A stretch of 64,000 bases of DNA from the IMG/VR virus record IMGVR_UViG_3300035034_001463, positions 1 through 64,000 of that record; one strand, 5' to 3'. Origin of the DNA: a virus. Of this stretch, positions 37,318-43,510 are shown one piece after another (the first letter of the stretch is position 1; every line of letters starts with the position of its first letter). The notes under the pieces are model-generated. The model had not been told where the DNA came from. It made no database searches and saw only the letters and a list, made by a program, of their open reading frames with translations. The position numbers and the translations under genes are program-made.

Positions 37318-37920
37318 ATGGCAGTTATAATAAAAGAACCTTATCATTGCACTTTTATTCATAATCCAAAAACAGGCGGTTCGAGTATTACTGCATGGCT
37401 TAAATCTAACTTTAATTGTAATACTACTAAACGACAAATGGGGGCAAATGTTGAACAGTCTAAAGAAATATTTGGAGATTTAGGATGGACCTTTTCAACT
37501 GTAAGAAATCCTTGGAGATGGGCCGTAAGTTGGTACGAATTTAAATTAACTGAAAATCAAGAAAGAATGGAAAACCTAAATAATCCAAGATATTTTAATT
37601 CACATAAAAAGAAACATAATAAAGAATATCTAATTGAAACACAAAAATTTCTTGAATTAGGTTTTGAAAATTGGTTATTTCAATCTAAACAAGGACCTCA
37701 ATATCAAAATGTAATTCATTGTGATTATATAATGAAACAAGAAACTCTTTCAACGGATTTTAGATTAGTCCAGGATAGGTTAAATTGTTATACCGAATTA
37801 CCAACCTTAGTACAATCTATCAAACTTAAACCATGGCGAGAATATTATACTCCTAAAACCGTTGATTTTATAGCGAAAACCTACATCAAAGACATCAAAG
37901 AATTCAATTATCAATTTTGA
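37318..37920 (+). CDS. Sulfotransferase-like protein
   Basis: A 200-aa protein with both PAPS-binding signatures of the carbohydrate sulfotransferase family: FIHNPKTGGSSITAWL (5'-phosphosulfate loop, PKTGGSS at 17-23) and STVRNPWRWAVSWYEF (3'-phosphate site, RNP-x-x-x-x-x-S-W-Y at 63-73). Such enzymes transfer sulfate from PAPS to hydroxyls of glycans or proteins. It starts directly after the gp4 stop, so the gene probably moved into a late structural operon. Possible substrates are virion glycans, the tail-tip proteins or host surface sugars. I cannot decide between them from the sequence. Confidence 0.7.
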   Translation: MAVIIKEPYHCTFIHNPKTGGSSITAWLKSNFNCNTTKRQMGANVEQSKEIFGDLGWTFSTVRNPWRWAVSWYEFKLTENQERMENLNNPRYFNSHKKKHNKEYLIETQKFLELGFENWLFQSKQGPQYQNVIHCDYIMKQETLSTDFRLVQDRLNCYTELPTLVQSIKLKPWREYYTPKTVDFIAKTYIKDIKEFNYQF

Positions 37921-40568: not shown

Positions 40569-41207
40569 ATGAGTAGAAATGTAGACGGAGTTCTTGTTAA
40601 GAAGGCAAACCAACAGGAAAAATATACACAAGACCAAATTGATGATTTAGTTAGGTGTATGGATCCAGAAGATGGACATCATTATTTTTTAAGGAACTTC
40701 TTCTACATACAGCATTCTGTCAAAGGAGAATTGCTGTTTGACCCATTTTCTTACCAAACAAGATTATTAGATAGTTATCACAAATATCGATTTAATATTA
40801 ATATGTTACCTCGACAAACAGGAAAAACTACCTGTGCTGCAGGATATTTGCTTTGGTATGCAATGTTTAATCCTAATCAAACTATTCTAATTGCGGCTCA
40901 TAAATATACCGGTGCATTAGAAATTATGCAACGAATACGGTATGCTTATGAAATGTGTCCTGATCATGTACGTGCAGGACAAACAGAATATAATAAAGGA
41001 AGTATTGTTTTTGAAAATGGTTCAAGAATTGTCGCTCAAACTACAACCAATAATACCGGTCGTGGTATGGCTATATCATTATTATATTGCTTGGACGGCG
41101 ACACTACTACGGTCCAAATTCGAAATAAATTGACAAAAATAGAAGAAACTGTTACACTAAAAGATCTATACGTAAGATTAACAGGAGCCACAAAGGTCCT
41201 AGTTTAA
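40569..41207 (+). CDS. 17: Large terminase N-terminal part with N-intein (split TerL)
   Basis: 212 aa. Residues 1-173 are the N-terminal ATPase half of gp17: FFYIQHSVKGELLFDPFSYQ (adenine-binding side), NMLPRQTGKTTCAAGYLLW with the Walker A PRQTGKTT at 81-88, then NNTGRGMAISLLY. At residue 174 (TGC at 41088) an N-intein begins, CLDGDTTTVQIRNKL, and the ORF stops after 39 intein residues (end VTLKDLYVRLTGATKVLV). The second half of TerL is in the ORF at 42125. The N-extein breaks off right at the hydrophobic strand of the Walker B motif, so it should be inactive alone. Confidence 0.9.
   Translation: MSRNVDGVLVKKANQQEKYTQDQIDDLVRCMDPEDGHHYFLRNFFYIQHSVKGELLFDPFSYQTRLLDSYHKYRFNINMLPRQTGKTTCAAGYLLWYAMFNPNQTILIAAHKYTGALEIMQRIRYAYEMCPDHVRAGQTEYNKGSIVFENGSRIVAQTTTNNTGRGMAISLLYCLDGDTTTVQIRNKLTKIEETVTLKDLYVRLTGATKVLV
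41088..41204 (+). other. N-intein (splicing block A) of split TerL intein
   Basis: 39 residues starting CLDGDT, the block-A signature with nucleophilic Cys1, and ending VTLKDLYVRLTGATKVLV before a stop. The length and the DLY-x-RL ending resemble the very short N-fragment of AceL-TerL-type atypically split inteins. Block B is not in this fragment. Confidence 0.85.
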
Positions 41208-41222
41208 CAGAAAGCTTGTAAT

Positions 41223-42158
41223 ATGCAAATAAAAATTAAAAAGTTCATAGAACGTAATCAAAAAAGAAATCAAAAACTATATCAATCTGAAATGAAAGAG
41301 CGTATTGATTATATTGTGTGTCCGGTTAGTAATCAACGATTGAGTATGATTAAATCATCTTATATCGTCAACGTATTAGAAATGACAGTTGAAGAATACG
41401 ACCGGTTGTATCCGGGTATTAGAGGTGTTAGCGAAGCAAGAAAACGAAATATTAAAATGGGTCTTAAAAAGATTGACGCAGAAACTGGCTTGTCTAAATA
41501 CGAAGTTGGCCAAGTCAAAGCGAGAAAAATCTTAAAGCAAAAAGATTCTGATGGTCTAAGTGGGTATGATAAAAAAGGTAAAAAAACTCGTGCAACACAT
41601 ATGGCAAATGTTGATGAATTTGGTAGGAATGGCTACCGCCGGCAAGCTGATGCCAGATTAACTACAATATTGCCCAACGGTTTAACCATCGAACAAAATG
41701 CACACAAAAAACAGAAACAAACCTTAATTAAAAACAATAAAACAGGCACCGGTGGTGCTAGCAAACTTTCTAAAAGAGTTTTGAAACCGATTATTGATTG
41801 GTTAGATCAAAACGAAATCAAATATTATTTTGATAAAAACGAATATGGGATTAAAGATACAGCGACTGAAAATTATTATTTTTGGGATTTAACTATTCCG
41901 AAATTTAAGATGGCAATAGAATATCAATCAACGGCCTGGCATGCAGATCCAACTCTTTCTGAATCAGAATGGAAGGATTGGAAACCACCTAGAGGTAAGA
42001 AGAAATCTGCAGATGAAGTATTAACATATGACTATAATAAAGCCCGTTCGTTATTTAAAAATAGACAATTTTTAACATATTACATCTGGCAATCAACGCA
42101 AGACCTAATCGTAAAGGAAATTATATGTTTGTTGAAAACAATGAATATGAAATATTAA
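41223..42158 (+). CDS. Free-standing Vsr-like (EDxHD-type) homing endonuclease
   Basis: 311 aa between the two terminase halves. The N-terminus is basic, with a degenerate zinc-finger-like region YIVCPVSNQRLSM and T-V-E-E-Y-D-R-L-Y-P-G, then linker motifs GYDKKGKKTRATHM and NGYRRQADARL, then QNAHKKQKQTLIKNN. The C-terminal catalytic part reads YYFWDLTIPKFKMAIEYQST, then A-W-H-A-D-P, then LTYDYNKARSLFKNRQFLTY: D, E and H residues spaced as in the Vsr-related family known from marine fractured genes with split inteins. It probably cuts uninterrupted terL to spread the element. Its last 34 nt overlap the start of the C-intein ORF. Confidence 0.8.
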   Translation: MQIKIKKFIERNQKRNQKLYQSEMKERIDYIVCPVSNQRLSMIKSSYIVNVLEMTVEEYDRLYPGIRGVSEARKRNIKMGLKKIDAETGLSKYEVGQVKARKILKQKDSDGLSGYDKKGKKTRATHMANVDEFGRNGYRRQADARLTTILPNGLTIEQNAHKKQKQTLIKNNKTGTGGASKLSKRVLKPIIDWLDQNEIKYYFDKNEYGIKDTATENYYFWDLTIPKFKMAIEYQSTAWHADPTLSESEWKDWKPPRGKKKSADEVLTYDYNKARSLFKNRQFLTYYIWQSTQDLIVKEIICLLKTMNMKY

Positions 42159-42448
42159 CTCCAACAGGATGGAAAGATTTCCGAGGAGTATCGTGTGCTG
42201 GTGAAAAAATTACATACAATATTGTTACAGATAATAATAGTATTAATGCAACATTGGGGCATTATTTTTTTATTAACAATGAAAGAAGAAAAGTAGCCGA
42301 TTTGTTGGTTGGTGATATTATTGAAACAAATAATACCCATGAAAAAATTATATCAATTACAGAAAACCCGTCGTCGGTAGTTTATGATATAATTGAAGTA
42401 GATGAAGACAACCATAAGTTTATAGCTAATAATATTACAACTAAAAAT
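42125..42448 (+). other. C-intein (blocks B-G) of split TerL intein
   Basis: 108 residues, MFVENNEYEILTPTGWKDFR at the start and ITTKN at the end. It is like the C-fragment of AceL-TerL, which also begins with MF and carries block B. The penultimate residue is Lys rather than the usual His, and the +1 residue is Cys. The TLGH motif provides the block B histidine. Confidence 0.85.
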
Positions 42449-43510
42449 TGTGACGAGTTTGCGTTTGTTCCACCTAACATTGCTATAGAATTTTGGACTT
42501 CTATATCACCTACTCTAGCAACTGGTGGACGTGCTATTATAACATCTACACCAAACTCAGACGAAGATACTTTTGCTACTATCTGGAAAGAAGCAGAAAA
42601 TAAATTTGACGAATATGGTAATGAAGGCACAGTGGGAGAAAATGGATTTCATTCTTTTACTGTTGCATGGAACGAACATCCGGACCGTGATGAGGAATGG
42701 AAAAAAGCAGAAACAGGTCGTATAGGTGAAGAAAGATTCCGGCGTGAATATGGGTGTGAATTCCTTGTATTTGACGAAACTCTTATATCTTCTATTAAAT
42801 TAGCAAACATGCCCGGGCGAGAACCATTACTTAACATGGGACAAACACGCTGGTATAAAAAACCAAATAAGAAATTTAGTTATGTTGTTGCACTTGATCC
42901 TTCTATGGGAACCGGCGGTAACGATGCTGCTATACAAGTATTTGAAGTTCCTACATATGAACAAATAGGAGAATGGAAACATAACTCTACAGCTATTCCT
43001 GGACAAATACGAGTACTAAGAGAAATATGTAATTATCTTGAAGAAATGTGCGGCTCCTCGTCTAACATTTATTGGAGTGTTGAAAACAATACAATAGGAG
43101 AAGCTGCTCTTATTGTTATTGAAGATTTTGGTGAAGAAACTATTCCTGGATTGTTTGTATCAGAACCTATGAGAAAAGGACATATACGCAAATTTCGAAA
43201 AGGATTTAATACCACGCACGGAACTAAAATTTCAGCTTGTGCTAAGTTAAAAACTCTAATCGAAAACGATAAATTTAAAATTAATTCTAAACCTCTTATT
43301 TCTCAATTAAAGGATTTTGTTGCTCATTCTACAACCTACAAAGGAAAGAACGATCGACCAGATGATTTAGTATCTGCTATTCTTCTTACAATAAGAGTAT
43401 TAACCGTAATGAAAGATTGGGACCCTGCTGTATATCAAACATTTGTTCAAGCCGACCCCGACGATTATTACGATGTAAGACCAATGCCGATGTTTATAAC
43501 AATGGGTTGA
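42125..43510 (+). CDS. 17: C-intein plus large terminase C-terminal part (split TerL)
   Basis: 461 aa, ATG preceded by AAAGGA. Residues 1-108 are a C-intein: block B-like ATLGH (T-x-x-H) near 42-46, block F-like VYDIIEVDEDNHKFIANNIT, terminal Asn108. The C-extein starts with Cys109 (TGT at 42449) as CDEFAFVPPNIAIEF, which supplies the Walker B DE, the coupling motif IITSTPNSDE, and the RNase-H-like nuclease: VVALDPSMGTGGNDA (Asp), YWSVENNTIG (Glu), NDRPDDLVSAI (Asp). Joining to the 173-aa N-extein gives a 526-aa terminase reading SLLY-CDEF. It is probably active only after trans-splicing. Confidence 0.9.
   Translation: MFVENNEYEILTPTGWKDFRGVSCAGEKITYNIVTDNNSINATLGHYFFINNERRKVADLLVGDIIETNNTHEKIISITENPSSVVYDIIEVDEDNHKFIANNITTKNCDEFAFVPPNIAIEFWTSISPTLATGGRAIITSTPNSDEDTFATIWKEAENKFDEYGNEGTVGENGFHSFTVAWNEHPDRDEEWKKAETGRIGEERFRREYGCEFLVFDETLISSIKLANMPGREPLLNMGQTRWYKKPNKKFSYVVALDPSMGTGGNDAAIQVFEVPTYEQIGEWKHNSTAIPGQIRVLREICNYLEEMCGSSSNIYWSVENNTIGEAALIVIEDFGEETIPGLFVSEPMRKGHIRKFRKGFNTTHGTKISACAKLKTLIENDKFKINSKPLISQLKDFVAHSTTYKGKNDRPDDLVSAILLTIRVLTVMKDWDPAVYQTFVQADPDDYYDVRPMPMFITMG

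What the first reader, a model, noticed from the sequence alone, without database searches (positions are those of the whole stretch)
40569..43510. Fractured large terminase gene: trans-splicing split intein plus intervening homing endonuclease
Seen: the TerL N-part ends at residue 173 (SLLY) and continues with CLDGDT and 33 more intein residues to a stop; 918 bp later a second ORF opens with a 108-aa C-intein ending TTKN, then Cys plus the rest of TerL (CDEFAF). A 311-aa ORF lies between. Known: fractured genes with split inteins and a Vsr-like endonuclease were found in marine metagenomes, and AceL-TerL is an atypically split TerL intein with a very short N-fragment. Inferred: both halves are translated from separate ORFs and must splice in trans to rebuild a 526-aa terminase; the break sits directly at the Walker B strand, so no active ATPase exists before splicing. 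This would make splicing a possible timer of DNA packaging.
Basis: partly seen in the sequence, partly recalled or inferred. Interest (0 to 1): 0.95.

Follow-up and report, generated by a model that had tools for sequence, protein, structure and literature searches.

The report
Split-intein terminase with swappable homing cassette
A jumbo phage encodes its DNA-packaging motor protein as two separate genes that must be protein-spliced together, with a DNA-cutting gene wedged between them; about 40 related loci show that this mobile cassette swaps its nuclease and one half of its splicing element as a unit.

Summary
The large terminase (TerL) is encoded as two ORFs. The N half (40569-41207) is 173 TerL residues plus a 39-aa IntN. 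The C half (42125-43510) is a 108-aa IntC followed by Cys and the rest of TerL. A 311-aa endonuclease ORF lies between. Some 79 relatives carry an uninterrupted TerL reading SLLYCDEFAF, fixing the insertion point inside the Walker B strand. This is a "fractured gene" with an atypically split intein, related to AceL/GOS-TerL but at a different TerL site.

Relatives add more. (1) IntN and the endonuclease's recognition domain form one pool, while nuclease domain and IntC form two linked lineages: Vsr-like with ...TKN|C, and HNH with ...SHQ|C. Two near-identical phages differ mainly in that ~0.8 kb block. (2) Most relatives, but not the window, carry a 20-nt copy of the C-extein start just before the endonuclease, resembling the I-TevI operator. 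(3) Some lineages lost the endonuclease; two fused the intein back into one ORF. (4) In isolated phage SCTP-2, TerL is spread over three unlinked genes.

Trans-splicing is strongly supported but not demonstrated. The "packaging timer" idea has no support; contiguous revertants argue against it.

The parts
40569..41087 (+). TerL N-extein (residues 1-173), with Walker A PRQTGKTT (GKT at nt 40821-40829)
   Evidence: Terminase_6N 7.7e-10; 84% identical uninterrupted relative L004
41088..41207 (+). IntN, 39 aa from Cys1 (CLDGDT...), plus stop TAA
   Evidence: Same stretch at the same residue in 49 viral contigs
41208..41222 (+). Spacer before the endonuclease; the 20-nt C-extein copy seen in most relatives is absent here
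   Evidence: Best match 8/20, below shuffled level; 38 of 42 relatives have 15/20 or more
41223..41636 (+). Endonuclease ORF, N-terminal domain (residues 1-138), presumed DNA recognition; shared with HNH-type endonucleases
   Evidence: 63% identity to the L005 domain, 36% to SCTP-2 gp225; trees
41748..42158 (+). Endonuclease ORF, C-terminal Vsr-like nuclease domain (about residue 176 to end) and stop
   Evidence: tblastn to Vibrio phage 2.275 gp381 and PTm1 VSR endonuclease; Foldseek Vsr/AbaSI
42113..42118 (+). AAAGGA, likely ribosome-binding site of the C half, inside the endonuclease ORF
   Evidence: Read from the sequence
42125..42448 (+). IntC, 108 aa ending TTKN, block B ATLGH
   Evidence: CatC 4.2e-6; alignment of 31
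42449..43510 (+). TerL C-extein from the +1 Cys (C-D-E-F-A-F); Walker B Asp-Glu at nt 42452-42457; nuclease domain; stop
   Evidence: T4 gp17 1.3e-14; phrog_36964 1.3e-78

Best explanation
The TerL gene of this jumbo phage is a fractured gene. The two halves are translated separately and joined by a naturally, atypically split intein (39-aa IntN, 108-aa IntC), rebuilding a 526-aa terminase without a scar, because the required +1 Cys is already present in uninvaded relatives. The ORF between the halves is a modular endonuclease (shared recognition domain plus a Vsr-like nuclease) that presumably cuts uninvaded TerL genes at SLLY^CDEFAF and thereby copies the whole IntN-endonuclease-IntC cassette into them. 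Shown: gene anatomy, exact empty site, homology and fold, conservation, patchy mobile-element-like distribution, module exchange. Inferred: splicing in trans, cleavage at the empty site, homing.
For: ORFs and exteins. Empty site with identical flanking residues, Cys included, in 79 fetched relatives; the 84% identical L004 is empty. 49 of 49 pattern-selected contigs carry the same intein at the same residue. IntC is homologous to CatC. A contiguous relative is modelled as TerL plus an intein: Foldseek hits T4 gp17, VidaL, gp41-1 and Cat. Splicing residues are kept: Cys1, block B T-x-x-H, terminal Asn or Gln, Cys+1. Endonuclease dN/dS 0.08-0.14 in relatives. Neither half is complete alone. In the isolated phage SCTP-2 the halves at this site lie in unlinked genes on opposite strands, so a working TerL there seems to need joining in trans. 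All states of the cycle are seen: empty, with endonuclease, degenerate endonuclease, no endonuclease, contiguous.
Against: No splicing, cleavage or homing was measured. The penultimate residue in V-type IntC is Lys, not the usual His. The window record is an 86-kb metagenomic fragment, so an intact second TerL elsewhere is not excluded. The nuclease fold match is weak (E 0.02).
Confidence: 0.9

Rival explanations
1. The two halves act as independent subunits that assemble without splicing, and the intein remnants are inert tails.
For: Phage nrdA genes in pieces that keep function after endonuclease insertion are known (reference listed in PMC3322345).
Against: The break lies inside the Walker B strand, with a folded-size IntC fused directly before the catalytic Asp-Glu. 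Intein catalytic residues are conserved across about 30 loci. Contiguous relatives keep an unbroken 680-691 aa frame through the intein, and the splice borders stay exact.
Confidence: 0.04
2. Splicing at the RNA level (group I or II intron) rather than at the protein level rejoins TerL.
For: ICP1 terL is spliced from an intron-split gene (PMC10448857), and an intron was claimed in Campylobacter IBB_35 terL.
Against: No Rfam match at E<=1. The stretches flanking the break are intein halves by sequence and fold and are conserved as protein.
Confidence: 0.02
3. A dying or non-functional locus (decayed element or assembly error), with another TerL used.
For: The window lacks the upstream 20-nt element that most relatives have; the record is incomplete.
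Against: All three ORFs are intact, relatives show purifying selection, the same arrangement recurs in about 40 contigs, and no second TerL C part was found in the held record.
Confidence: 0.04

Closest known systems
Fractured genes with split inteins and a Vsr-like endonuclease family in marine metagenomes (Dassa et al. 2009, NAR 37:2560; paper not held, known from citations and memory)
   Same: Gene broken into two ORFs by a split intein with a free-standing endonuclease ORF between them; nuclease of Vsr-like fold
   Different: TerL Walker B insertion site; atypical short IntN; here the recognition domain is shared with HNH-type endonucleases and has been exchanged repeatedly
AceL-TerL / GOS-TerL atypical split inteins (review PMC11766414; consensus Cat, PDB 6dsl)
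   Same: TerL host, short IntN (25-37 aa) and long IntC (104-115 aa), sequence homology of IntC to CatC (4.2e-6)
   Different: They sit at the CEF(L) site; this one sits at LLY^CDE in Walker B, about 100 residues upstream. L105 and L206 carry both sites
Split DNA polymerase with intein and VSR endonuclease in Tenacibaculum phage PTm1; split PolB of MIJ3 (PMC6892783)
   Same: Same three-ORF arrangement; nuclease domain homologous in PTm1 (29%, 2e-5)
   Different: Different host gene and intein
Contiguous TerL inteins of mycobacteriophages, e.g. TerL1-e at Walker B (PMC5050341)
   Same: Walker B as an intein target
   Different: Contiguous, and in another TerL family
I-TevI and its autorepressor operator in phage T4 (PMC2988022)
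   Same: Homing-site-like sequence directly upstream of the endonuclease ORF (15/20 nt there, 15-20/20 in most relatives here), next to a late-promoter-like TATAAATA
   Different: Here inside a split-intein locus, with TATAAATA only 12-16 nt from the start codon; absent from the window

Membership tests
Fractured gene (split intein plus endonuclease) | Host gene in two ORFs, each ending or starting with an intein half | tested here: met
Fractured gene (split intein plus endonuclease) | Free-standing endonuclease ORF between the halves | tested here: met
   311-aa ORF; relatives in 56 loci
Fractured gene (split intein plus endonuclease) | Vsr-like nuclease domain | tested here: met
   PTm1 'VSR endonuclease' at 2e-5; Vsr and AbaSI are the top four Foldseek hits, prob 0.72-0.89, E 0.02-0.18. 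Fold level only; no Pfam match
Fractured gene (split intein plus endonuclease) | Splicing in trans | not testable with these tools
   Needs co-expression; unlinked halves in SCTP-2 are indirect support
AceL/GOS-TerL intein allele | Atypical split (IntN 25-37, IntC 104-115 aa) and homologous sequence | tested here: met
   39/108 aa; IntC matches CatC at 4.2e-6
AceL/GOS-TerL intein allele | Insertion at the TerL CEF(L) site | tested here: not met
   Insertion at LLY^CDEFAF; CatC extein is C-E; the window's CEFL site is intact
Class 1 intein (HINT) | Cys1, T-x-x-H block B, C-terminal Asn/Gln and Cys+1 | tested here: met
   Alignment of 31 inteins
Class 1 intein (HINT) | Penultimate His in block G | tested here: not met
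   V-type has TKN, H-type SHQ. Active inteins without it are known (general knowledge), so this is a frequent rather than a strict feature
Class 1 intein (HINT) | HINT fold | tested here: met
   Contiguous relative L097: Foldseek hits VidaL, gp41-1, Cat and many inteins; model moderate overall (mean pLDDT 63.8)
I-TevI-like autorepressed homing endonuclease | Homing-site mimic upstream of the endonuclease ORF | tested here: inconclusive
   38 of 42 relatives have at least 15/20; the window does not (8/20)
I-TevI-like autorepressed homing endonuclease | Endonuclease binds the mimic and represses transcription | not testable with these tools
   Needs binding and reporter assays

The most novel reading that the evidence does not exclude
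The TerL cassette is a two-module selfish element. Module one is IntN plus the endonuclease's DNA-recognition domain; module two is a nuclease domain locked to its own IntC lineage. One IntN pool therefore serves two IntC lineages that are only 33% identical, and the nuclease is replaced in nature by recombination between the recognition domain and the C-extein. In most members (not in the window) the endonuclease is kept in check by binding a 20-nt copy of its own target placed before its gene, a copy that also supplies the stop codon of the N half in most loci. The module exchange is shown by sequence; cross-compatibility and autorepression are predicted.
Probability: 0.5. Interest if true: 0.85.

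Novelty: new variant of a known kind. Interest (0 to 1): 0.72.

Why it matters
It gives a natural series, at one residue of one essential protein, of every stage of a split intein's life: empty, invaded, endonuclease decayed, endonuclease lost, and fused back. It provides natural allele pairs in which the same IntN is paired with two very different IntC lineages, so split-intein cross-reactivity and orthogonality can be tested with sequences that evolution has already vetted. It makes testable whether homing endonucleases with replaced nuclease domains keep the same target, and whether a target-site mimic autoregulates them as in I-TevI. The SCTP-2 case is a predicted essential motor protein built from three unlinked genes by protein splicing.

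Tried and rejected
The 311-aa endonuclease alone found no viral relatives with the search for related loci; a 15-row alignment found 56. Pfam has no model for the endonuclease. An intron explanation was rejected (no Rfam match). TATAAATA as an ordinary late promoter of the endonuclease was considered: outside the element it lies 25-46 nt before gene starts in 8 cases, but in the element only 12-16 nt, so the promoter reading is doubtful. Co-conversion around the site between window and L004 gave only a slight rise in identity (0.77-0.85 over about 240 nt against roughly 0.72 elsewhere) and is not used as evidence. A PDB search with IntN alone gave nothing: too short. Dassa 2009 could not be read. 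AlphaFold models are moderate (mean pLDDT 76.1 and 63.8) and are used only for fold class.

Full report
Observation. The N half (40569-41207) is TerL residues 1-173 ending SLLY, followed by a 39-aa IntN, CLDGDTTTVQIRNKLTKIEETVTLKDLYVRLTGATKVLV, and a stop. The C half (42125-43510) is a 108-aa IntC ending TTKN, then Cys-Asp-Glu-Phe and the rest of TerL. A 311-aa ORF lies between, overlapping the C-half start by 34 nt. Pfam and PDB searches confirm T4-type TerL on both sides and match IntC to CatC, the consensus atypical split intein. The record is an 86,270-base virus record, no other intein of this kind or second endonuclease being found in it. The closest annotated TerLs are those of the PA5oct/MIJ3-type Pseudomonas jumbo phages (53%) and of CBB (45%).

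Insertion point. Of the 80 loci fetched with the C half, 79 are uninterrupted at this site and read SLLYCDEFAF or nearly so. L004, 84% identical over all 526 residues, is empty, and L005 carries the same split intein. The +1 Cys was thus already in the host protein, so the intein needs no extein change. The Walker A lysine is in the N half and the Walker B Asp-Glu pair in the C half, so neither half alone should be an ATPase; this is a sequence argument, not a measurement.

Family. A DNA pattern for LY-C-L-D-G-[D/E]-T-T returned 49 viral contigs, and all 49 are this TerL site with this intein. A profile of the endonuclease gave 56 loci, partly the same contigs. Across them there are split loci with a full endonuclease (most), loci with a degenerate endonuclease (L102, L104, L105), split loci with none (L113, L121, L139), and loci with a contiguous intein (L097, L110). 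The contiguous ones nest among split ones in the IntC tree. L097 matches split L101 almost base for base in IntN and IntC. Both contiguous forms keep the IntC start Met and have a perfect inverted repeat at the former break (13 and 18 nt arms). The simplest reading is that the endonuclease was deleted and the frame restored, so the fracture is reversible.

Two-module structure. IntC falls into two lineages: V (window...TKN|C) and H (...SHQ|C). Identity is 54.6% within V, 66.6% within H and 32.9% between; the split has 100/100 support. The nuclease domain follows IntC without exception: V-type IntC with Vsr-like nuclease 14 of 14, H-type IntC with HNH-like nuclease 23 of 23, among contigs where both could be read (some contigs are near-copies; 7 and 14 distinct IntCs in the first set). 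IntN (66.7, 66.8 and 64.9% within V, within H and between) and the endonuclease recognition domain (56.5, 62.4 and 58.7%) do not separate the types. On the recognition-domain tree the V/H label needs 6 changes, about as many as shuffled labels (6.6), and a single V clade is rejected (AU p about 1e-6). The clearest case is L167 (V) against L205 (H). Upstream DNA is 98% identical over 2.7 kb, and nearly identical through endonuclease codon 134, right after the conserved RNGY. The block from there to the intein/extein border is unrelated or distant. The C-extein is then 97% identical. L162 against L195/L200, L158 against L187, and L172 against L203 show the same layout at greater divergence. Because the breakpoints recur in several contigs, single assembly chimeras do not explain it. 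L213 appears to add a third, classical HNH nuclease behind the same recognition domain.

The 20-nt element. In 38 of 42 endonuclease loci the bases before the endonuclease, right after IntN, match TGTGACGAGTTTGCATTTGT, the C-extein start (CDEFAFV), at 15-20 of 20 positions (shuffled mean about 10, maximum 14), usually followed by TATAAATA and the endonuclease ATG. In most loci it is out of frame with IntN, and its TGA is the N half's stop. It is missing where the endonuclease is lost, in four divergent members, in L100 and in the window (8/20). Across 32 distinct copies, variation concentrates on the codon-third positions of DEFAF (consensus frequencies 0.66-0.91), while the other positions are near invariant apart from one (0.78), although this copy is mostly not read in that frame. 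That is what a DNA-binding protein tolerant of synonymous changes in its target would leave; repeated copying from C-exteins could do the same, and no formal test was made. I-TevI has a 15/20 homing-site mimic over its promoter and represses itself there (PMC2988022). I therefore propose an operator. Against it: TATAAATA is too near the ATG for the usual spacing, and a footprint of past rearrangement is possible.

Trans evidence in an isolate. Salicola phage SCTP-2 has TerL in three genes annotated 'terminase large subunit' on both strands: gp534 (residues 1 to about 86, break inside the P-loop, then IntN), gp267 (IntC, middle extein ending SLLY, IntN of this site) and gp224 (IntC of this site ending SQ|C, plus a further contiguous intein). 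A related endonuclease, gp225, lies next to gp224. Unless an intact TerL was missed, this phage must join TerL in trans.

Structure. The endonuclease model (mean pLDDT 76.1) has a confident, mainly helical N-terminal region; Vsr and AbaSI are its best PDB matches (weak E values, prob 0.72-0.89). The contiguous relative L097 gives T4 gp17 plus many inteins, including VidaL, gp41-1 and Cat.

Comparison with what is known. The arrangement is of the 'fractured gene' kind, and TerL is a known split-intein host. AceL/GOS-TerL are relatives, but at the CEF(L) site. Vibrio phages Va1, VP-1 and K364 have split inteins at that site too, and Campylobacter phage CP30A has an IntC two residues downstream of the present site (VDE|CAFI; its N half was not examined). 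Walker B inteins exist in mycobacteriophages as contiguous inteins. I found no paper in the held library describing this site, the module exchange or the element, but key subscription papers are not held.

Timer hypothesis. Nothing here supports it. Absence from most relatives, endonuclease decay and return to a contiguous form fit a selfish element better. It cannot be excluded.

Noticed in passing
L084, L092, L093 (SCTP-2 213659-224132, 253500-260500, 427000-432500): TerL of Salicola phage SCTP-2 is spread over three unlinked genes on both strands (gp534, gp267, gp224), broken in Walker A and Walker B, with a third, contiguous intein in gp224; gp267's IntN carries extra intein sequence overlapping IntC.
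   Followed up: partly
L105, L206: TerL with two split inteins, at Walker B and at the RRE..G|C (CEFL) site; L105 has an HNH-like ORF after the second IntN.
   Followed up: partly
L213 3254-6102, L163 2330-3829: TerL additionally interrupted at about residue 86 (Walker A); L213's endonuclease joins the shared recognition domain to a classical HNH nuclease, a third nuclease type.
   Followed up: partly
L097 4507-4542, L110 833-875: Both contiguous inteins have perfect inverted repeats at the former split point; origin unexplained.
   Followed up: partly
L147 (Campylobacter IBB_35), L145 (CP30A): IBB_35 TerL shows several intein halves (Walker A, near RGYAC, VDE|C), where the genome paper reported one intein and an intron; CP30A has an IntC at VDE|CAFI.
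   Followed up: partly
L013 650-1393; L003 2054-2761: A second, partial TerL ATPase-like ORF directly upstream of TerL in one IMG/VR contig and in phage CBB.
   Followed up: no
window 37318-37920: ORF matching phrog_3347 (galactose-3-O-sulfotransferase, 1.1e-13) between head-closure and virion structural genes.
   Followed up: no
window 666, 8077, 14157, 52064: TATAAATA on the + strand lies 25-31 nt before gene starts, while the word is depleted overall (5 found, 11 expected): likely T4-type late promoters.
   Followed up: partly
L100: Endonuclease with about 110 extra N-terminal residues and no 20-nt element before it.
   Followed up: no
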